Part shown: positions 1 through 11,043 of the stretch, one piece after another | Numbering within the stretch: position 1 is the first letter of the stretch | Layout of the letters: every line of letters starts with the position of its first letter | From: a virus | Virus record (IMG/VR): IMGVR_UViG_3300046006_002404 | Span: 1-23,069 of that record | Strand: one strand, 5' to 3' | DNA: 23,069 nt | Made by a program: the position numbers and the translations under genes | Notes under the pieces: generated by a model | The model's input: the letters and a program-made list of their open reading frames with translations, nothing else | Database searches by the model: none | Told to the model about the DNA's origin: nothing

Positions 1-1316
1 TCAGTGAACATAATCGAAAGCTCTCTTGATTCTCCGCCGAGTTTCAAGAGGTCTGGTTGTCTTTGCAATCTCGCAACCAGATCTGGACTCAGATATGTGC
101 CAAACTGTTTCTTAATCTGCTGCTTCTGAAGGAATTCAGAGATAAACTTTACGGTATAAATATGCATGTAGATGATAGCGATGGCCATTACGTTAAACGT
201 CACATCTAACAAGATTCCTTTACTCGCGAATAAATACATCGGTAAATAAAGGTATCCACCTAGAATCAAACCTATCCAAACGATAGAGTATTTTAATCGA
301 GAGATAATGATCAATGACAGAGCTAAAACAAGTAGAGCAGCCAAATCTACAAGCTGAGTCCAATTCGGAATCGAAACAGAATCACCATTTATCAGAGTCT
401 CAAGAATACTCGCCTGGAGCTGATGGGGATGCTGCGCACCTGACGGAGTCGCTACGGGATTACTTACTCCAGCTGCAGTCACGCCGAGAATCACGATTTT
501 ACCTGTCAGATCAGGCAAAGGACTCGCATCAATTTCGTATGACTGGAATCGATAGTTCGGATTGATGAACACTCTTCCATATTCGTCTGTTTTAATTGTT
601 TCAAAAGAAGGAATTCGTAATGCTTCAACCCCAGTCTGATTTATCTTGGCTTGATACGAAGAGTCTCCTGCAGCTACACGCAGCATCTCTAGAGCAAATG
701 CGGGATAGTATTCGCCTGATGACTCAGATAGAAGAGGAACTCGCCTTACAACCCCATCAGTCTCGGGTAGGGTTGACGTTATCCCAACACCGGCTGCGGC
801 TTCTTGAAGAACTGAGACATTACTTAGAACGCATGGGTATTGAGGAAGAAATTCAGTTGCTTCTCCATCGCCGATTACGGCAACGCCTGTTTTCCGAATT
901 GTCGCACTTGCCCGAGAGCAAGAATCACTCACAGTCTGACTGAGAACGACTGGATATTTGTTTAAGCTACTCGCAAGAACTCTATCAGTACCCATCCGAT
1001 CAGGCTCAGGCATAAGTATAGTGCTGCCAACAAGAGCAGCCCCTCTGCTATAGACATCATCCAAAATTTTAGCGTGGACTTCGCGCGGGAAAGGCCACTG
1101 GCCATATTTTTCAATTGATTTCTCCCCTAAATTAATGACTACAATCTGCTCAGATTGTTTTGCTTTATCAAGCATGATATAGTCATAGAATTTAAGACGA
1201 GTCGCTTCAACTAAATACGGATCTTGTAATTTAAAAGTAAGTAATAGTGCAAATGTAAAAAGAGCAAGCCATGGGCTCAATAGAATCTTTTTAATTTTTT
1301 GTGTAAGTATATCCAT
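1..1316 (-). CDS. CHASE2-domain transmembrane adenylate/guanylate cyclase (3' end outside window)
   Basis: Reading the minus strand from the ATG at 1316 gives 439 residues without a stop before the left edge. Residues about 14-30 form one membrane segment. Residues about 35-320 are an extracytoplasmic CHASE2 sensor: the block around 60-106 has the typical GQWPFPRE followed by GAALVGSTI, and residues 183-192 read PETDGVVRRV, followed by a YPAFALE block. Residues about 322-393 hold three membrane helices, followed by a short linker. GGESRELSIMFTD at 427-439 is the canonical opening of a class III nucleotide cyclase catalytic domain, whose first metal-binding Asp is the last visible residue. The rest of the catalytic domain lies off the window, so activity and ATP/GTP preference cannot be judged. 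The start overlaps the preceding gene by 26 nt, so translation is probably coupled. Known family members sense extracytoplasmic cues and make cAMP or cGMP. The domain call is strong; the role in a phage is inference. Confidence 0.9.
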   Translation of the reverse strand, partial: MDILTQKIKKILLSPWLALFTFALLLTFKLQDPYLVEATRLKFYDYIMLDKAKQSEQIVVINLGEKSIEKYGQWPFPREVHAKILDDVYSRGAALVGSTILMPEPDRMGTDRVLASSLNKYPVVLSQTVSDSCSRASATIRKTGVAVIGDGEATEFLPQYPCVLSNVSVLQEAAAGVGITSTLPETDGVVRRVPLLSESSGEYYPAFALEMLRVAAGDSSYQAKINQTGVEALRIPSFETIKTDEYGRVFINPNYRFQSYEIDASPLPDLTGKIVILGVTAAGVSNPVATPSGAQHPHQLQASILETLINGDSVSIPNWTQLVDLAALLVLALSLIIISRLKYSIVWIGLILGGYLYLPMYLFASKGILLDVTFNVMAIAIIYMHIYTVKFISEFLQKQQIKKQFGTYLSPDLVARLQRQPDLLKLGGESRELSIMFT

Positions 1317-2751
1317 TACAAGGTCCGGTCGTACATGTGATTGACATTAAGACTGAGTCAGTAGCACTCGCAACAGTTTGCGATACAGTGACTCCAATTC
1401 CAGGATTATTTATTATTAGTTTAAACAGCTTCTGCGCTGCACCAGATTGGGTGATGTTTGCATTCAATCCTCCATACGGCGCGCTGATATCAAGGAAATG
1501 ATTACCAGTTCCTTGTTGAAGAGTCGTGACAACATTTGAGTTACCCAAGATGTTGAAGAACGCAGACTTTCCACCAGCATCTTTTTGCTGAGCAGTCAGT
1601 TGATTTCCTGTTCCATTTATTACCAACTCTGCATACTTGCCATTATATTGCTGAGTCAGAGATACAGTGTTGTTGTTTCCTGTCACAGATACTTCAGCAA
1701 GATTGTTTCCAAGAACTGCAGCTGCAGTGCCTTGATTGATAGTAATAGCGTTGTTGCTACCGTTGATCAACATCGATTGAGAACCATTCACACCTCTGAT
1801 AGCGTTAAACCTTGAGAACTGTTCAATGTTGACGGTGTTATTATCACCAATGTTTTGAATGTAAATCGAGTTGCTTGCAATAGCATTTGTCTGACCAAGC
1901 TTAATAGTTTGATTAGTGGCAATTGATGTAGTTGGATATGTTGGTTCTGCAGGAGGCGGAGGTGGAGCAGTCGGCGCCGAAGATCCTTCGTTAGGTGCAA
2001 CAGGAGCAAACGTAGTACCATTCAGTGCTGTAGCGCCTTGCAACTGATCGATGAACAAGATAGGAGATAGCGCGGTATCGCCAAGATTGAAAGACGAGAA
2101 GCCAAGCATATAGTTGCCATCTGCTGGAACTGTGAACACAGCAACCTGCCATCCAGTAGCACCATATGAATTGGTCGAGTAGTTGCCCGTTCCAGGATTC
2201 GTAAATCCTAATAGCGCAAAGTTCTGTGTTTGACCGTTAAGCGTTGGCGTTCCTGGTCCACCTGTCAAGGTGATGAGAGAACCGTCGTTATACGGAACAT
2301 AGTCTGTCGACAGGTACTGCCAACCAAATGAGTATGTAATCCCTGCTTGTAGGAATACTGTTCGACTGACGGAAGAAGCGTTCGTAGGATTCATCGATCC
2401 GTTCGAATAGATCGTATTACGAATAGATGTGATGTCTGAAGAGGCAAGGCCGAGAGTCGTCATCGCAGTGTTGAATTGCGGAGAATTTCCTCCTGCTTGA
2501 ACCGATAGCATGTACGATCCATACGGAGTAATCGTCCAACATTTGCCACCGCCCGGGCAATAGTTCTGCATACCAGTCGTCACTTGTACGCCGCTACCGT
2601 TATCACTCCATGACGTACGAAGTGTAGTAGATCCATTAGAAGCTGTCCAGCCGCCATAGTTTCCATCTTCAAAACCATAGTTCGAAGGAGTCTGGGCGTT
2701 AGCTAATGATCCCCACATTAACATCATCAATGCTAAGATTAACTTCTTCAT
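1291..2751 (-). CDS. Secreted lectin-like/curlin-repeat fusion protein
   Basis: This 486-residue protein has a clear signal peptide (KK, hydrophobic core, cut near residue 19 in the ANAQ context). Residues about 21-245 look like a beta-sandwich of the carbohydrate-binding/jelly-roll kind, with NYGFEDGNYGGW near the start and DGNYMLGFSSFN plus FIDQL at the end. A proline-rich hinge at about 250-277 contains PPPPP. Residues about 290-470 are roughly seven imperfect repeats of 20-25 residues rich in Asn, Gln and Gly, with cores such as IGDNNTVNIEQ, TGNNNTVSLTQQ and GTGNQLTAQQ, matching the curlin (CsgA/CsgB) repeat pattern. The ATG overlaps the FecR-gene stop by 4 nt. It is probably exported through the CsgG-like pore encoded upstream and carries a binding head on an amyloid-like base. 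The sugar or ligand bound is unknown, and the beta-sandwich call is pattern-based. Confidence 0.78.
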   Translation of the reverse strand: MKKLILALMMLMWGSLANAQTPSNYGFEDGNYGGWTASNGSTTLRTSWSDNGSGVQVTTGMQNYCPGGGKCWTITPYGSYMLSVQAGGNSPQFNTAMTTLGLASSDITSIRNTIYSNGSMNPTNASSVSRTVFLQAGITYSFGWQYLSTDYVPYNDGSLITLTGGPGTPTLNGQTQNFALLGFTNPGTGNYSTNSYGATGWQVAVFTVPADGNYMLGFSSFNLGDTALSPILFIDQLQGATALNGTTFAPVAPNEGSSAPTAPPPPPAEPTYPTTSIATNQTIKLGQTNAIASNSIYIQNIGDNNTVNIEQFSRFNAIRGVNGSQSMLINGSNNAITINQGTAAAVLGNNLAEVSVTGNNNTVSLTQQYNGKYAELVINGTGNQLTAQQKDAGGKSAFFNILGNSNVVTTLQQGTGNHFLDISAPYGGLNANITQSGAAQKLFKLIINNPGIGVTVSQTVASATDSVLMSITCTTGPCNGYTYTKN

Positions 2752-3884
2752 CTTGCACCTGATTCTTGTATTACGGTAATGTTGCCTTGAGGTCTACCAG
2801 TTCCAGATGAAGTCCACTTATCGTCCATAAAATTATACACATCTACAATGTTATTCTGAGAAGAAACAACTTGCACTTCTGTATCTTTCGGTAACCATAT
2901 CACAACAGCTTGATTTTTATCTTCAGATAATCTAGCATAAAACCAACCAATTTGTTGCATCTTCTTGAAAATAGGAGACACGTTTGTATAGACAGTTTCT
3001 GTTGGTATGTTTCCAGAATTATATTCGGCATAGATTTCTTGGAGTTCTTGCTGATTGGGCAATCGAACAGTAGCTACAGTAACTTCCTCATTACTATCTG
3101 ACCCAGTATTAGGATCTTGGTTGTCGTCAGATGCCGCTTTTGCAGGATTGACAAACTTCTTAAGCGCTTCGCGAGCAGCAGTGATCAGTGATTGACCGTC
3201 ATCAGTTTCGAGAGGAGAGATTTGAATATTGTTATCCATACCCTTCATCGAAGGATTAATGACAACAGGCGGCGCAGGAGGAGCATAAGAATTCTCGACC
3301 ATCGTTGCTTGGAACGGCTGAGTCAGAGTTACGATGCCCGCAGCAGTGATCACGTCGATAGCTCCTGAAGGGCATTCGAAGTTAATCTTTGTAATATCTT
3401 TATCGTTGTAGCATTCAGGAACAAGAACGACAGTCGATCTGCCTGCTTCGTCAACAGACATGACAAAATCTGTACCTCTTACAGCAATCGTCGCAGTCGG
3501 TGTACGTATACCAACACCCTTTGAATTTCCCTTTGCGATCGCGCCAGAAGTATATCTTGCCGTTCCTAAGGCAAGCTTCAGGCCAATCTTGCCTTTACTC
3601 TTGTTGTTTCCATCATATACGAAGTCGTCGATGACTAGCCGTGAATTCTGTGTAATGTTCACAGTGGTGGCATCGACGAATCGAATCTTAAATTTACCTT
3701 GAGAATTGGTCGACACAGTATCGTTCTTCTCGATACTCGAGCCTTTAACAGCAGGTGCAACCTTTGCACCACGCTTTACAGAACCTCCACCCTGAAATTC
3801 TGATATCGATCCCACACCTGCAAAGGCGGGAACCGATATCAGAAAGAGTGCATTAATGGCCAGTTTTAATATTAAACGTACCAT
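2748..3884 (-). CDS. FecR-domain periplasmic protein
   Basis: This 378-residue protein begins with a signal peptide (residues 1-22, ending AFA). Residues about 25-190 match the FecR domain: the segment GKFKIRFVDATTVNITQ is followed by SRLVIDDFVYD, LALGTARYTSG and the hallmark RTPTATIAVRGTDF at about 127-140. The C-terminal half (about 200-378) is hydrophilic, has no recognised domain, and includes DDNQDPNTGSDSNEE. FecR domains sit in the periplasm. Some are anti-sigma regulators; stand-alone versions lacking the N-terminal cytoplasmic part, as here, are often encoded next to CHASE2 cyclases. Here the cyclase lies one gene downstream. The gene overlaps the curlin gene before it by 32 nt and the next by 4 nt. 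I infer that it passes a periplasmic signal to the cyclase or anchors the fibre; neither is shown by the sequence. Confidence 0.85.
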   Translation of the reverse strand: MVRLILKLAINALFLISVPAFAGVGSISEFQGGGSVKRGAKVAPAVKGSSIEKNDTVSTNSQGKFKIRFVDATTVNITQNSRLVIDDFVYDGNNKSKGKIGLKLALGTARYTSGAIAKGNSKGVGIRTPTATIAVRGTDFVMSVDEAGRSTVVLVPECYNDKDITKINFECPSGAIDVITAAGIVTLTQPFQATMVENSYAPPAPPVVINPSMKGMDNNIQISPLETDDGQSLITAAREALKKFVNPAKAASDDNQDPNTGSDSNEEVTVATVRLPNQQELQEIYAEYNSGNIPTETVYTNVSPIFKKMQQIGWFYARLSEDKNQAVVIWLPKDTEVQVVSSQNNIVDVYNFMDDKWTSSGTGRPQGNITVIQESGAR

Positions 3885-4626
3885 TTGAACCCGCCGAGTT
3901 AATATTGATTACGGTTTCAGAAGCTCCGTACTGTTGGGTTGTAATGGTGTTCAGTGTACCTGTGAGGTTCACATACAGAGAATGGCCGAATGTTCCGCCG
4001 AGACCTGTTTGTGTCACGTCGAAGTCATTGTAATCACCAGTCACGAGAATGGTTTGAGTTGCGTTAGGTGAGAGTGCATCGATATTGAATGCATTGTTAT
4101 CACCAGTGACATCCATCGAGTTACGAATGTTTTCGCCAGAACCGCGAAATGTAAGAGCATTTGAATTGCCAGTAAATTTCGCATTCAGATCAAACTTATT
4201 ACATATGGCATCGCCTTGTAGTACACCGCAACGAATGTCTGCAGTATTCAGATTGCCGATTTGACGAACTGTTACTGTTGCGATTCCTGTTGCTCCTGTA
4301 GCGGAGACCACGCCCATGTAGAGTTGGTTTCCGTTACCGGTTTGAACAGCGATGACACTTTGATTATCACCTCGTAAATAGATAGGATCATCATTGTCGC
4401 CAATGATATTAGCAGTACCAGTTTGAACAACGTTAACATCTACATTGCCACCTTCTTGATCGATATATACTTTGTTTGTTGTAGCTACTGCACCTGCAGT
4501 CACCTCATTCGGTGACGTAGTTACAATTGCTGGTGGAGTTGGGGCTGTCGGTAGCACGGTTTGTGCAGTCACAGATGTTCCATAAAGAAGAGCAGCTCCA
4601 ACTAATAAAAACTTACTTAGTTTCAT
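3853..4626 (-). CDS. Secreted curlin-like repeat protein (CsgA/CsgB type)
   Basis: The ATG at 4626 is preferred over an upstream one at 4671 because AAGGA lies 8 nt before it and a signal peptide (about residues 1-21, ending SVTA) then begins at residue 1. The mature part is a series of about eight repeats of 20-28 residues with cores such as YIDQEGGNVDVNVVQTG, VQTGNGNQLYM, VRQIGNLNTADI, VTGDNNAFNID and VTGDYNDFDVTQTG. This is the strand-turn-strand Gln/Asn/Gly pattern of curlin amyloid subunits. An alanine/proline/threonine-rich segment separates the signal peptide from the repeats. The gene overlaps the end of the CsgG-like gene by 14 nt and is the natural export substrate of that pore. The repeats are more degenerate than in Escherichia coli CsgA, so it could be a minor or nucleator subunit. 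Fibre formation is inferred. Confidence 0.8.
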   Translation of the reverse strand: MKLSKFLLVGAALLYGTSVTAQTVLPTAPTPPAIVTTSPNEVTAGAVATTNKVYIDQEGGNVDVNVVQTGTANIIGDNDDPIYLRGDNQSVIAVQTGNGNQLYMGVVSATGATGIATVTVRQIGNLNTADIRCGVLQGDAICNKFDLNAKFTGNSNALTFRGSGENIRNSMDVTGDNNAFNIDALSPNATQTILVTGDYNDFDVTQTGLGGTFGHSLYVNLTGTLNTITTQQYGASETVININSAGSNGTFNIKTGH

Positions 4627-5437
4627 TTGTCGTTTCCTTTTGCTTGAATCTCCATAGTCCTTTACGTTCACCGTCCTTGATTAATTCCACGACTGCCGTT
4701 TCTATGGCTGAACGGATCGCATAACTACCGGCTTCATTTGATGTTTGTTGTCCATCAAATTCAAAAGCTTTTGTTCCCATATCGAAAAACTTAAATGCTG
4801 TGATTCCCTCGGACGTAGAGAGTAAATTCTTCTCAACGGTGACAGAAGTTAAAACTTCACCTGTCTGAACCGAAACGAGTCGCATACTAATAGTAACTTG
4901 ATCTTCTGAATACTGTTGATAAGGACCGATTCCGAGGAATCTTGCGCCGTTACCACCAGTTTTGGTATTTGAACTATAGTCAATAATACCACCTTCAAGG
5001 ATGATACCTGCAACCATCAAAGGAGGAAGCGGTTCTGCGCTTTCGCCGAGTTGTTGCTCTCTCATCTGTCTTACGAGCTGACGTTCTTTGATCAAAGAAT
5101 CAATGCCTACACGCTCGACTGGTTTAAACCATTTGCCATCGCCAGCATCTGCCAATGTTTTGATAACATAAGCGTCTGCGCCTTGAGTGACGGCTGTCGA
5201 GAAACTGGCTTGAGTAGCAGAAGGTTTGCGTTGTCCTGTTCTATCAGTGAACGAGTAGATGGCAATCGGAATTACCTGACCATCAAGTTCTGGTAGAGTT
5301 CTGAACAACTTAGGATTTGCAAATCTTTCTACTTCAGCATCTTCTCTTGCGAGATATGACTGATTGAGATGAGGATGCACTCCTCCTGCGCAAGCGGTTG
5401 TAATAAGAAGTAATGGAAGTAATAAAAGCTTTTTCAT
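4613..5437 (-). CDS. csgG: CsgG-like outer-membrane amyloid secretion channel lipoprotein
   Basis: At 274 residues it is nearly the length of Escherichia coli CsgG (277). It starts with a lipoprotein signal (Cys16 in TTACAGG, although Thr at -3 is not ideal). The body follows CsgG closely: VIPIAIYSFTDRTGQRKP corresponds to the IFVSVYNIQDETGQFKP region, SFSTAVTQGADAYVIKTL to the constriction-loop region, KWFKPVERVGIDSLIKER to WFIPLERQGLQNLLNER, and GGNGARFLGIG to GGVGARYFGIG. The C-terminal end also matches (SAIETAVVELIKDG, then GLWRFK). In the constriction loop the Phe is kept but the Tyr and Asn of the E. coli pore are Ser here. CsgG forms a nonameric outer-membrane channel for curlin export. 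It follows the CsgF-like gene by 9 nt and runs into the curlin gene. No csgE is seen in the window. Confidence 0.93.
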   Translation of the reverse strand: MKKLLLLPLLLITTACAGGVHPHLNQSYLAREDAEVERFANPKLFRTLPELDGQVIPIAIYSFTDRTGQRKPSATQASFSTAVTQGADAYVIKTLADAGDGKWFKPVERVGIDSLIKERQLVRQMREQQLGESAEPLPPLMVAGIILEGGIIDYSSNTKTGGNGARFLGIGPYQQYSEDQVTISMRLVSVQTGEVLTSVTVEKNLLSTSEGITAFKFFDMGTKAFEFDGQQTSNEAGSYAIRSAIETAVVELIKDGERKGLWRFKQKETTNETK

Positions 5438-5446
5438 GACTTCTCC

Positions 5447-5887
5447 TTAAAATGCAAATGTTGCGATAGGAACAGTCACGACTGTCGTATTACCAAATTT
5501 ATCGACAACTGTCAACGTCACAGATGTACCAGTCTTTACATAGCTAATCGTATTACCATCAAGATTAAACATACCTTGTTGAGCAGAACCTTCGGCAAAC
5601 AGATTGTTCGACAATTGAGTGGCTAGCTGAGCATATACCTGCGAGGTAAACAGCGCCATAAACTTTGCAAGCGGAGTGTTTGAAGCTTCAGCTCTTGCAA
5701 GAGCAATCTTTGCGGCTTCGGCATCTCTAATTGCCTGCTCACGAGAACGTTCTTGTGCATCGATTGACTGCACATGTGACGACCATCCATATCCATTGAA
5801 GGATGGACTTTTAAACTGTTGTACGAGAGGATCAGCTTTTACTGGGCTGCTTAGTATCAGAGCTAGCAGGAGCAGACTCTTTTTCAT
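5447..5887 (-). CDS. csgF: CsgF-like curli assembly factor
   Basis: This 146-residue protein has a signal peptide (residues 1-18, ending VKA). The mature N-terminus LVQQFKSPSFNGYGW matches the CsgF segment FQFRNPNFGGN that inserts into the CsgG pore. A helical, Ala/Gln/Glu-rich middle (about 42-95) resembles the linker and helix of CsgF, and the C-terminal part (YVKTGTSVTLTVVDKFGNTTVVTVP) matches the CsgF beta-rich tail with its VTDRKTGQT-type hairpin. CsgF (138 residues in Escherichia coli) couples secretion to nucleation at the cell surface. AAGGA lies 8 nt before the ATG. It lies 9 nt before the csgG-like gene, a fixed pairing in curli systems, which supports both calls. Confidence 0.88.
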   Translation of the reverse strand: MKKSLLLLALILSSPVKADPLVQQFKSPSFNGYGWSSHVQSIDAQERSREQAIRDAEAAKIALARAEASNTPLAKFMALFTSQVYAQLATQLSNNLFAEGSAQQGMFNLDGNTISYVKTGTSVTLTVVDKFGNTTVVTVPIATFAF

Positions 5888-7416: not shown

Positions 7417-7590
7417 TTATGTATCGTTATTTTTCTTTGGATATTTCTGATAGTATGATTCTTCGATATTCTCTCCGAAGAAATCGAGCTCGAGCTCGTT
7501 GAGTTCTTTCACAACACGATAGCCAAGATAGGAAAGGATTCCTACGACTGCTATTCCTGCAACTCCAGCTACGACTTTCTTATTATCCAT
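7417..7590 (-). CDS. Small single-pass membrane protein, 57 residues
   Basis: The ATG at 7590 lies within the last codons of the peroxiredoxin gene (8-nt overlap). Residues 1-5 are MDNKK, then a membrane helix rich in Gly/Ala/Val/Ile (about 6-24), then a charged acidic and aromatic tail (KELNELELDFFGENIEESYY). It ends 17 nt before the terminator. No family is recognised. The overlap suggests coupled expression with the peroxiredoxin, but the sequence gives no functional link. Confidence 0.65.
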   Translation of the reverse strand: MDNKKVVAGVAGIAVVGILSYLGYRVVKELNELELDFFGENIEESYYQKYPKKNNDT

Positions 7591-8170
7591 TTTCTTTCAA
7601 CCAGTTTAAGATGTTTTCTGGAGAGGTTTCACCATAAGGATCTACTGGACAGTTATCTTCTGCACCTGGTTCGATAAACCATTTCTCGATCTTACCGTTA
7701 TTGACGACACACGCATAACGCCATGAGCGTTCACCAAAACCAAGGTTATCTTTATGAACTAGCATACCCATCTTACGAGTGAACATACCTGATCCATCAG
7801 GAATTACTTTGACCTTCTTCACCTTCTGTGCTTTGGCCCATGCATTCATGACGAAGGCATCATTGACCGATACACAGTAGATGTCCTTGATTCCGAGCGC
7901 CTTGAATTCAGCAAACTTCTCTTCGAAACCAGGAAGCTGATAAGTTGAACACGTCGGAGTGAATGCGCCTGGAAGAGAGAAGAGAACTACACGCTTACCT
8001 GCGAATAAGTCCCACGTCGTCACATCTTCCCAGCGATAAGGATTATCTCCTTCAATTGAGTCATCTCTAACACGAGTTTTAAAAGTTACACTTGGAACAA
8101 GAGTTTTCAGTTCATCGCCTACATTCTCATCAATATCCCAAAACCTTTTGATCTTAATACGTTCTACCAT
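7583..8170 (-). CDS. Prx5-type peroxiredoxin
   Basis: The 195-residue protein carries the Prx5 active-site block LPGAFTPTCSTYQLPGF with the peroxidatic Cys at residue 74, the conserved Thr three residues before it, and the catalytic Arg in the GERSWRYACVV segment near 151. Cys174 (EDNCPVDPYG) is placed where some Prx5 enzymes carry the resolving Cys. Cys154 is an alternative. These enzymes reduce peroxides with thioredoxin or glutaredoxin as electron source. The extra segment at about 30-50 (VRDDSIEGDNPYRWEDV) is typical of Prx5 proteins with a longer strand region. AGGAG lies 6-7 nt before the ATG. In a phage it would protect the infected cell or phage DNA from oxidative stress, which is inference. 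Confidence 0.92.
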   Translation of the reverse strand: MVERIKIKRFWDIDENVGDELKTLVPSVTFKTRVRDDSIEGDNPYRWEDVTTWDLFAGKRVVLFSLPGAFTPTCSTYQLPGFEEKFAEFKALGIKDIYCVSVNDAFVMNAWAKAQKVKKVKVIPDGSGMFTRKMGMLVHKDNLGFGERSWRYACVVNNGKIEKWFIEPGAEDNCPVDPYGETSPENILNWLKENG

Positions 8171-9360: not shown

Positions 9361-9607
9361 TGCTGTTACTATCTTTGTTCATTTCCATTTGCTTCATGAT
9401 ACGCTGCTCTTCTTTCAAGCGAGCAGCTTTCGTAGCAGGAGTTTCCATTGTCTTTTCTTTATGTGCTTGGCGTTCTTCGGGTGTCATCTTGTTTGTCATA
9501 TCAAGGATGATGTTAAACAAGCGGCTGAACTCAGAAGAGTTCGGAAAGTAGCGTTGAACCGATGCGAAGCGAGTTTCAGCCATCGTCAAGTAATCAGAAT
9601 TAGTCAT
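9356..9607 (-). CDS. Small helical protein, 83 residues
   Basis: The ATG at 9607 is chosen because GGAG lies 6 nt upstream. An earlier in-frame ATG at 9619 has no such site. The product (TNSDYLTMAETRFASVQRYF at the start; PEERQAHKEKTME and KAARLKEEQRIMKQMEMNK later) is almost wholly helical and rich in Lys, Glu and Met, and its C-terminal half may form a coiled coil. No family is recognised. It is the first gene after the TGTACA promoter at 9632-9660. Confidence 0.65.
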   Translation of the reverse strand: MTNSDYLTMAETRFASVQRYFPNSSEFSRLFNIILDMTNKMTPEERQAHKEKTMETPATKAARLKEEQRIMKQMEMNKDSNSI

Positions 9608-9631
9608 TATAATCTCCATTTCTTATTATTC

Positions 9632-9660
9632 AATCTACTACAGTTTACATAATTTGTACA
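9632..9660 (-). promoter_or_regulatory. Phage TGTACA-type promoter 2
   Basis: TGTACA (9655-9660), 17 bp, TAGATT (9632-9637), then GAATAATAAG downstream, which is shared with the copy near 11440. The stretch upstream reads TGCGTTATTTAG, a relic-like version of the terminator tail seen at other copies. It lies between tRNA-Thr and the 83-residue gene. Confidence 0.65.
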
Positions 9661-9688
9661 CTAAATAACGCATACAATGAAAAATAAA

Positions 9689-9764
<76 letters not shown>

Positions 9765-9781
9765 ATTGTCTATTATATATC

Positions 9782-9857
9782 TGGCGGCGGGTGGTAGGAA
9801 TTGAACCTACTTCTCAAGGTTTTGGAGACCTGCGGATTGCCGTTTTCCTTCACCCCC
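9782..9857 (-). tRNA. tRNA-Trp(CCA), with a flawed acceptor stem
   Basis: Anticodon loop CTCCAAA on a CAGGT/ACCTT stem gives CCA. The T-arm GTAGG/CCTAC carries TTCAATT, and the D-arm is GGA/TCC. The acceptor pairs GGGGGTG with CACCCGC except for a G-G clash at position 2-71. An extra C precedes the GCCA tail. Upstream it is fused directly to a second, broken tRNA-like sequence. It may fold poorly or need correct trimming, and could be non-functional. Confidence 0.75.
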
Positions 9858-9899
9858 GTAAACAGAGTCTGTTGTCCTCTACCGCTAGACGATCGAGGA
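9858..9899 (-). pseudogene. Broken tRNA remnant fused to tRNA-Trp
   Basis: From 9899 the minus strand follows tRNA numbering: acceptor 5' strand TCCTCGA, then TC, D-stem GTCT/GGAC with loop AGCGGTAGA, then ACAGA, a single C, and TCTGT. The last three are a 5-bp anticodon stem with the loop reduced to one base. TTACGGGGG follows, as a variable loop and T-stem 5' strand would, but the rest is replaced by tRNA-Trp. No matching acceptor 3' strand is found. The anticodon is lost, so its identity is unknown. The first 15 bases also encode the last four codons and stop of the methyltransferase gene. Confidence 0.6.
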
Positions 9900-10445
9900 A
9901 TTTGAAGAATATTCTCCGTGTATACCTTTAATATGTGCATAATGATACATCATATTACCAAAATTTTCTAACGGAACCTTTTGATAAAATGTAATGTCAA
10001 ATCTAATGAGATCAGATAACTTCATATTAGACTTATGTTTCTCATATGGGTTATTTTCCCAGTGACCCTGACTAACATTTGTTGGCCATGCAATAATAAT
10101 ATTGCGAGCACAATACGTCAAAGTCTCAAGTGTATCAATCGCTTCACTTAGATAAAGATGTTCAAGGATATCAAAACAAATAACAAGATCGTACATCTTA
10201 GCATCTGTTTTAGTAAAATCCTGCACAGTCATCTTATGAAGAACATCATACTTGTTCTCTAGATCAAACTTGGTCCAGTATCTTTCAGTCGGCTCGATAG
10301 CTTCAATTGTTGCACCAAGAGGAGCAACAGCTTTCATATGCCTATAGTTACCAGAACCACAGCCGACATCTAAAATAGTATGCGGCTTGATTTGAGTAAT
10401 ATGCTCAACAAGTAACTTATCAAATAGCCCTACAGATCCTGGCAT
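9885..10445 (-). CDS. Class I SAM-dependent methyltransferase
   Basis: The 186 residues hold motif I ILDVGCGSGNY (about 24-34), the acidic residue ending strand 2 in EAIEPTERY, and the post-motif strand YDLVICFDILEHLYL. A Trp/Asn/His-rich segment follows (WPTNVSQGHWENNPYEKH). These show a Rossmann-type SAM fold. The overall pattern resembles the Methyltransf_11/23 group, which acts on small molecules, sugars or proteins. The substrate is not evident and no DNA-methylase NPPY motif is seen. AAAGGA is about 6 nt before the ATG. The gene sits alone between tRNA-Tyr and the tRNA remnant, and its last four codons lie in the remnant, so the C-terminus was probably altered by the same event. Confidence 0.85.
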   Translation of the reverse strand: MPGSVGLFDKLLVEHITQIKPHTILDVGCGSGNYRHMKAVAPLGATIEAIEPTERYWTKFDLENKYDVLHKMTVQDFTKTDAKMYDLVICFDILEHLYLSEAIDTLETLTYCARNIIIAWPTNVSQGHWENNPYEKHKSNMKLSDLIRFDITFYQKVPLENFGNMMYHYAHIKGIHGEYSSNSSIV

Positions 10446-10460
10446 AATTTATCCTTTGTT

Positions 10461-10545
10461 TGGTGGGCCAGTGAGGTATCGATCCTCCCCCGCAAACGGA
10501 TGAGATTTACAGTCTCACTGCCAGAGCCACTAGCTTTACCGACCC
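10461..10545 (-). tRNA. tRNA-Tyr(GTA)
   Basis: The acceptor pairs GGGTCGG with CTGGCCC (G-T wobbles). Anticodon stem TGAGA/TCTCA carries loop CTGTAAA, giving GTA. The variable arm is long, as expected for a class II tRNA. The T-arm loop is ATCGATA. CCA is encoded. Total 85 nt. Confidence 0.92.
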
Positions 10546-10551
10546 AAAAAA

Positions 10552-10627
10552 TGGTAGACCATGTAGGATTCGAACCTACGACCTAAGGATTAAGAGTCCC
10601 GCGCTCTACCAACTGAGCTAATGGTCC
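10552..10627 (-). tRNA. tRNA-Lys(CTT)
   Basis: The acceptor pairs GGACCAT with ATGGTCT, the D-arm is GCTC/GAGC, anticodon loop CTCTTAA gives CTT, and the T-arm GTAGG/CCTAC carries TTCGAAT. CCA is encoded. It starts 6 nt from tRNA-Tyr, so the two are processed together. Confidence 0.93.
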
Positions 10628-10633
10628 ATAAAA

Positions 10634-10765
10634 TTAAAATTGGTACATTACCCAATAGTATGCTACTGCACCACTGGACCAAGTCACTTTACTACCTCTG
10701 TACTTTTTGTTCGGTACGAGAGGGGACTCTGGCAATGGAAGTAAAATCCAATCTTCGTATTTCAT
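10634..10765 (-). CDS. Small protein between two tRNA-Lys genes, 43 residues
   Basis: ATG at 10765 follows AAGAG by about 6 nt. The product is Pro/Leu/Tyr-rich at the start (KYEDWILLPLPESPLVP) and aromatic at the end (SGAVAYYWVMYQF). No family is recognised. The frame fills the space between tRNA-Lys(TTT) and tRNA-Lys(CTT) almost exactly, which supports it as a real gene. Confidence 0.55.
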   Translation of the reverse strand: MKYEDWILLPLPESPLVPNKKYRGSKVTWSSGAVAYYWVMYQF

Positions 10766-10782
10766 AATATACTCTTTCAAAT

Positions 10783-10858
10783 TGGTGGACACTCCGGGGC
10801 TCGAACCCGGGACCTACAGGTTAAAAGCCCGTTGCTCTACCTACTGAGCTAAGTGTCC
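10783..10858 (-). tRNA. tRNA-Lys(TTT)
   Basis: The acceptor GGACACT/AGTGTCC is perfect, anticodon stem ACGGG/CCTGT carries loop CTTTTAA (TTT), and the T-arm CCGGG/CCCGG carries TTCGAGC. CCA is encoded. It is a second lysine tRNA, so both Lys codons are covered. Confidence 0.95.
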
Positions 10859-10866
10859 GTTAAACT

Positions 10867-11043
10867 TTAATACATTGGTTCTTCTGGATCGACGTCCTCA
10901 GCTGAGTAGGTAGGATACCAACCAGGAGTCTCGCGTTCCAAGAAGTTGATCATCTCGCTCGCTTTCTCTTCAGACGAGTAGATTCCGACCATAATCGAGT
11001 GATCTCCTTCAGGAGATTCATTATTCACGACATAAACTTGCAT
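10867..11043 (-). CDS. Small phage protein with VYSSEEKA-type core, 58 residues
   Basis: The start is the ATG at 11043. Longer in-frame readings give an implausible hydrophobic leader that overlaps the preceding gene. The start QVYVVNNESPEGDHSIMVGIYSSEEKASEMI follows a small alpha/beta pattern seen in many phage proteins, in which a surface turn IYSSEEKA precedes a helix. It is a distant paralogue of the next gene upstream (GVYASEEELRSAHDEY). The C-terminus is acidic (SAEDVDPEEPMY). The function is unknown. Confidence 0.65.
   Translation of the reverse strand: MQVYVVNNESPEGDHSIMVGIYSSEEKASEMINFLERETPGWYPTYSAEDVDPEEPMY

What the first reader, a model, noticed from the sequence alone, without database searches (positions are those of the whole stretch)
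9782..9899. Chimeric tRNA locus: a broken tRNA joined to tRNA-Trp at a GGGGG run
Seen: 9899-9858 follows positions 1 to the variable loop of a tRNA, with the anticodon loop reduced to one base. It then runs into GGGGGTG, which serves as the acceptor of tRNA-Trp. That acceptor has one clash at position 2, as if its original first bases (probably GCGGGTG) were replaced. Inference: recombination between the T-stem G-run of one tRNA and the acceptor of tRNA-Trp removed the rest of the first tRNA. The small anticodon deletion could come from a short GACT repeat.
Basis: partly seen in the sequence, partly recalled or inferred. Interest (0 to 1): 0.6.

Follow-up and report, generated by a model that had tools for sequence, protein, structure and literature searches.

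The report
Half tRNA-Gln relic before tRNA-Trp
In a virus of bacteria, the front half of a broken glutamine tRNA gene sits directly before an apparently intact tryptophan tRNA gene, a leftover of gene shuffling in the tRNA cluster; it is a tidy but ordinary genomic scar.

Summary
The window is a 23 kb virus record with T4-type clamp and clamp-loader genes and a minus-strand tRNA array. Bases 9899-9863 match the 5' half of tRNA-Gln(CTG): an Azospirillum tRNA-Gln(CTG) matches from position 6 to the end of the anticodon, 28 of 30 bases plus a 2-nt AG insertion. So the anticodon loop was not shrunk to one base; the copy stops after anticodon base 36. The next bases, (G)TTTAC, resemble this tRNA-Trp's usual leader (GTTTATAC in L048, GTTTGT in L007). 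The Trp acceptor was not replaced by this junction: L007 has the identical 76-nt Trp gene, GGGGGTG included, straight after tRNA-Lys without the Gln half. One bulged G gives a full 7-bp acceptor with G73. The half also supplies the last four codons and stop of a methyltransferase gene. No intact donor was found. Covariance models do not recognise the half; its tRNA origin rests on homology and a motif test. Best reading: an inert scar of array shuffling.

The parts
9863..9899 (-). 5' half of a tRNA-Gln(CTG)-type gene, positions 1-36 with a 2-nt AG insertion in the D arm; ends right after the anticodon CTG
   Evidence: Aligns to Azospirillum tRNA-Gln(CTG) positions 6-35; motif test; not scored by covariance models
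9858..9863 (-). GTTTAC, most likely the leader of tRNA-Trp (G at 9863 can belong to either side of the junction)
   Evidence: Leaders of the same tRNA-Trp in relatives: GTTTATAC (L048), GTTTATAA (L038-L040, L042-L044, L047), GTTTGT (L007)
9782..9857 (-). tRNA-Trp (CCA anticodon) with encoded CCA; 7-bp acceptor if G9788 is bulged, discriminator G9785
   Evidence: Rfam 45.1 bits; identical in L007; core conserved in all 16 records compared; energies
9885..10445 (-). class I SAM-dependent methyltransferase gene; last four codons (SSIV) and TAG stop lie inside the tRNA-Gln half
   Evidence: ORF list; Pfam Methyltransf_23 1.8e-7; alignment to relatives' homologues, which end GEYTSLI or GEYISLI and stop 6 bases before tRNA-Thr
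10461..10545 (-). tRNA-Tyr (GTA) with long variable arm, upstream neighbour; in L013 an intact tRNA-Gln(TTG) follows it directly
   Evidence: Read from the sequence; missed by ARAGORN and below Rfam's gathering score
9689..9764 (-). tRNA-Thr (TGT), downstream neighbour; the Trp-Thr spacer is shared with L023

Best explanation
The locus is an intact tRNA-Trp gene preceded by the relic of a tRNA-Gln(CTG)-type gene. The relic is a non-functional 5' half, cut directly after the anticodon and joined to the Trp leader by illegitimate recombination while the phage's tRNA array was reshuffled and a methyltransferase gene entered between tRNA-Tyr and tRNA-Trp. The methyltransferase gene now ends inside the relic and uses its D-arm TAG as stop. 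The relic is probably transcribed with the array and removed as leader when RNase P matures tRNA-Trp. Shown: homology of the half to tRNA-Gln(CTG), the junction position, identity of the Trp gene in a relative without the half, the stop codon overlap. Inferred: the recombination route, that the relic is inert, and processing.
For: Homology to Azospirillum tRNA-Gln(CTG), 28/30 plus a 2-nt insertion; E 0.5 for the fragment as it is, 6e-4 for a query with the AG taken out, 0 of 20000 shuffles as good. Roseobacter phage DSS3P8 tRNA-Gln(CTG) also matches. Motif test 0.025 expected. L007 has the identical Trp gene after tRNA-Lys. L023 has Lys-Trp-Thr with the window's Trp-Thr spacer, so the block Lys(CTT)-Tyr-methyltransferase-Gln half lies where Lys abuts Trp in L023. 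L013 has Lys-Lys-Tyr-Gln(TTG), so the half sits in the slot Gln takes after Tyr. In L007 the methyltransferase lies downstream of Trp instead, showing that its slot changes. No 3' half TCGAGGANCCA without a mismatch in the window or in record G001.
Against: No intact donor: patterns found only the same virus in viral contigs. Those patterns and the two genome-contig scans required the AG insertion, so they could not have found a normal donor. Covariance models do not recognise the half, although held-out tRNA-Gln and tRNA-Glu halves also score low (10.5 and 9.7 bits). Acceptor bases 2-5 do not match the Azospirillum gene. The record is partial, so a 3' half elsewhere in the genome is not excluded.
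Confidence: 0.75

Rival explanations
1. One reading: a complete 5' part up to the variable loop, with a 6-base slippage deletion in the anticodon loop, recombined in its T-stem G-run with the acceptor G-run of tRNA-Trp and replaced the Trp 5' acceptor bases.
For: ACAGA/TCTGT can pair around a 1-base loop, and GACT...GACT slippage is possible in L013-type tRNA-Gln (GGACTTTGACTCC). A hairpin over the same bases (AACAG/CTGTT) is in the predicted fold.
Against: The closest homologue shows ACTCTG as the intact anticodon side of the loop. GTTTAC matches Trp leaders. GGGGGTG is present in L007 without the half. The 3' acceptor also differs from relatives.
Confidence: 0.1
2. The fragment is not tRNA-derived: it is the native 3' end of the methyltransferase gene plus a spacer with two hairpins that happens to resemble a tRNA half.
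For: Covariance models miss it. It folds as two simple hairpins, z -2.19.
Against: Homology to tRNA-Gln(CTG) reaching exactly to the anticodon, 0 of 20000 shuffles; motif expectation 0.025 per window; it abuts a tRNA in the same orientation; homologous methyltransferases end without it.
Confidence: 0.1
3. The half is functional: a split or trans-joined tRNA-Gln, or a stable tRNA half that acts on the host, for example as a decoy for tRNA-targeting defence.
For: It ends exactly after the anticodon, the classical position for tRNA halves (own knowledge), and folds somewhat better than shuffles (3 of 200 as good).
Against: No exact partner 3' half in the window or in the 32.8 kb record G001. Only one virus has it. 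It overlaps a protein-coding end. The D arm carries a 2-nt insertion.
Confidence: 0.05

Closest known systems
tRNA pseudogenes in the tRNA arrays of T4-like phages
   Same: Broken tRNA genes within a phage tRNA array; predicted tRNA pseudogenes are tabulated for T4-like phages, 3 in one genome and 1 in another (PMC1524935).
   Different: Here the relic is a clean 5' half cut after the anticodon, fused to the leader of another tRNA, and it supplies the stop codon of an upstream gene.
tRNA-Tyr/segB repeat junctions in T6 phage
   Different: That event is an amplification tied to a homing endonuclease under selection; the window proteins searched here gave no homing endonuclease match, and nothing is amplified.
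Bacterial and phage tRNA-Gln(CTG), e.g. Azospirillum chromids and Roseobacter phage DSS3P8
   Same: Shared sequence from position 6 or 7 to the anticodon.
   Different: Those genes are complete; the window copy lacks everything after base 36 and has a 2-nt insertion in the D arm.

Membership tests
tRNA-Gln(CTG) gene fragment (pseudogene) | Sequence homology to tRNA-Gln(CTG) over the retained part | tested here: met
   Azospirillum tRNA-Gln(CTG), positions 6-35, 0 of 20000 shuffles as good
tRNA-Gln(CTG) gene fragment (pseudogene) | Conserved 5'-half residues and D-stem pairing | tested here: met
   Motif test; the motif was written after seeing the fragment
tRNA-Gln(CTG) gene fragment (pseudogene) | Recognised by a tRNA covariance model | tested here: not met
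   Rfam truncated search; own model R1; a positive control half was found by Rfam. Not strictly defining for a degenerate fragment.
tRNA-Gln(CTG) gene fragment (pseudogene) | 3' half absent | tested here: met
   Sequence runs into the Trp leader; no exact TCGAGGANCCA in the window or in G001
Functional tRNA-Trp | Cloverleaf scored by Rfam tRNA model above gathering threshold | tested here: met
   45.1 bits against 29
Functional tRNA-Trp | Paired acceptor stem with G73 and CCA | tested here: met
   7 pairs with one bulged G, G73, CCA; the bulge is unusual
Functional tRNA-Trp | Expressed and charged | not testable with these tools
   Needs tRNA-seq or Northern blot
Split or trans-joined tRNA | A matching 3' half encoded elsewhere in the genome | tested here: inconclusive
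   No exact match in the window or G001, but the genome is incomplete

The most novel reading that the evidence does not exclude
The half is kept because it acts: the phage makes a stable 5' tRNA-Gln half ending at the anticodon, or joins it to a 3' half encoded elsewhere in its genome.
Probability: 0.04. Interest if true: 0.75.

Novelty: new member of a known kind. Interest (0 to 1): 0.2.

Why it matters
It is a clear snapshot of how phage tRNA arrays change: a methyltransferase gene has shifted among tRNA genes and a broken tRNA now supplies its stop codon. It also shows that a standard tRNA finder misses an apparently good tRNA-Trp and a partial tRNA here. It opens no new mechanism.

Tried and rejected
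Exact and degenerate patterns for the half in viral contigs found only the same virus, and two scans of genome contigs found nothing; all of these patterns demanded the AG insertion, which was recognised as an insertion only afterwards. Wider scans for the methyltransferase gave the same seven loci. A sequence HMM from local tRNA halves did not list the fragment at E<50; covariance model R1 did not either. Rfam truncated search failed on the half but found a control half. A search for a 3' half gave only one-mismatch matches (chance level in the window). Relatives of a virus record cannot be drawn with the genome search. Considered: that the Trp acceptor G-run was copied from the tRNA-Tyr variable arm (GTTTGCGGGGG, 10497-10487); the resemblance to L007's leader and acceptor is 10 of 11 bases, too short to claim. 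Considered and not supported: assembly chimera, since three other assemblies carry the same junction.

Full report
What the window is. The window is a 23,069-base virus record. It encodes a T4-type sliding clamp, clamp-loader subunits and translation repressor and a minus-strand array of tRNA genes: Arg, Leu, Lys(TTT), Lys(CTT), Tyr, then a methyltransferase gene, the locus in question, Thr and Asn.

The observation. tRNA-Trp lies at 9857-9782 on the minus strand. Rfam scores it 45.1 bits; ARAGORN does not report it. Upstream, 9899-9858 reads TCCTCGATCGTCTAGCGGTAGAGGACAACAGACTCTGTTTAC. Three other assemblies (L005, L006, L008) carry the identical 118 bases and are identical to the window through 9600-10900 where they cover it. 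That excludes an assembly artefact but adds no independent lineage.

Is the upstream part a tRNA half? Evidence is mixed but favours yes. A fixed-position tRNA motif is passed by five called tRNAs and by this fragment, and by nothing else in the window; chance expectation is 0.025 per window and 85 of 146 real tRNAs pass. The motif was written after seeing the fragment. Against it, Rfam's tRNA model does not score it even when the stretch is cut so that a truncated match is allowed, though a tRNA-Thr 5' half treated in a similar way scores 23.4 bits. A covariance model built from 29 tRNA 5' halves of relatives gives the region at best 3.4 bits; held-out Gln and Glu halves also score low, 10.5 and 9.7 bits. 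The stronger evidence is homology. A blastn search of plasmid records matches tRNA genes on Azospirillum chromids. ARAGORN calls that gene tRNA-Gln(CTG). Its sequence TGGGGGATCGTCTAGCGGTAGGACTCCAGACTCTGACTCTGG aligns with the fragment from position 6 through the anticodon, 28 of 30 bases plus a 2-base AG insertion, with 0 of 20000 shuffles as good. E was 0.5 for the fragment as it is and 6e-4 for a query with the AG taken out. The tRNA-Gln(CTG) of Roseobacter phage DSS3P8 matches too.

What this changes. Read against these genes, the fragment ends with a complete 5' side of the anticodon loop, C32 T33 and anticodon CTG, and stops there. No loop deletion is needed. The next bases GTTTAC resemble the leader of this tRNA-Trp in relatives: GTTTATAC in L048, GTTTATAA in L038-L040, L042-L044 and L047, GTTTGT in L007. 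G9863 may belong to either side.

The Trp acceptor. Relative L007 has the same 76-base Trp gene, with GGGGGTG, directly after tRNA-Lys and without the half. So the G-run does not depend on this junction, unless L007 later obtained the gene from the window's lineage; the perfect identity of this gene against 90-99% in flanking blocks leaves that open. Other relatives have GTCGGTG and CACCTTC, so both strands of the acceptor tip differ. With one bulged G (9788) the window gene makes seven pairs and leaves G73 before CCA; this structure evaluates to -20.7 kcal/mol against -19.2 for the clash version and -14.4 for the relatives' form. The gene looks intact.

Array history. L023 has Lys-Trp-Thr with the same Trp-Thr spacer as the window. 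L013 has Lys-Lys-Tyr-Gln(TTG). L007 has Lys-Trp-methyltransferase-Thr, and L009 and L012 have Lys-methyltransferase-Thr. The methyltransferase therefore occupies different slots, and the window's copy is only 67% identical to the others. Homologues end GEYTSLI or GEYISLI with the stop 6 bases before tRNA-Thr; the window copy ends GEYSSNSSIV, with SSIV and the TAG stop read from the tRNA half. The half sits in the Gln slot after Tyr, separated from it by the methyltransferase.

Mechanism. The best account is illegitimate recombination during array reshuffling that kept 37 bases of a tRNA-Gln and joined them to the Trp leader. The relic is probably removed as 5' leader by RNase P (inference). 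Its only visible role is to give the methyltransferase a stop codon. No exact 3' half was found in the window or in the overlapping 32.8 kb record.

Known parallels. tRNA pseudogenes are tabulated in T4-like phage genomes (PMC1524935). Recombination at the border of a tRNA gene and a protein gene in the T-even tRNA region is described for T6, with microhomology between tRNA-Tyr and segB (PMC13096335). The finding is a new example of a known kind.

Noticed in passing
L013, L014, L017, L021, L023, L024, L025, L038-L044, L047, L048: The tRNA-Trp of most relatives has acceptor GTCGGTG against CACCTTC, with positions 2-71 and 3-70 unpaired in all of them; this double mismatch is kept across rather different array layouts.
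   Followed up: partly
1291-5887 (-): CsgG-like and FecR-like genes with neighbouring proteins of repetitive, curlin-like character, next to T4-type replication genes.
   Followed up: partly
7583-8170 (-): A redoxin/AhpC-TSA family (peroxiredoxin-like) gene in a phage record.
   Followed up: no
10461-10545 (-): A tRNA-Tyr with long variable arm, missed by ARAGORN and below Rfam's gathering score. Its GTTTGCGGGGG resembles GTTTGTGGGGG at the start of the Trp gene of L007 (10 of 11).
   Followed up: partly
L013 7289-7457, L017 7269-7438, L019 6659-6827: manA RNA motif above Rfam's gathering score in relatives; not found in the window.
   Followed up: no
L007 1633-2178, L009 5304-5849, L012 5183-5728: A methyltransferase gene changes its slot within the tRNA array between relatives and in each case ends against a tRNA.
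   Followed up: partly
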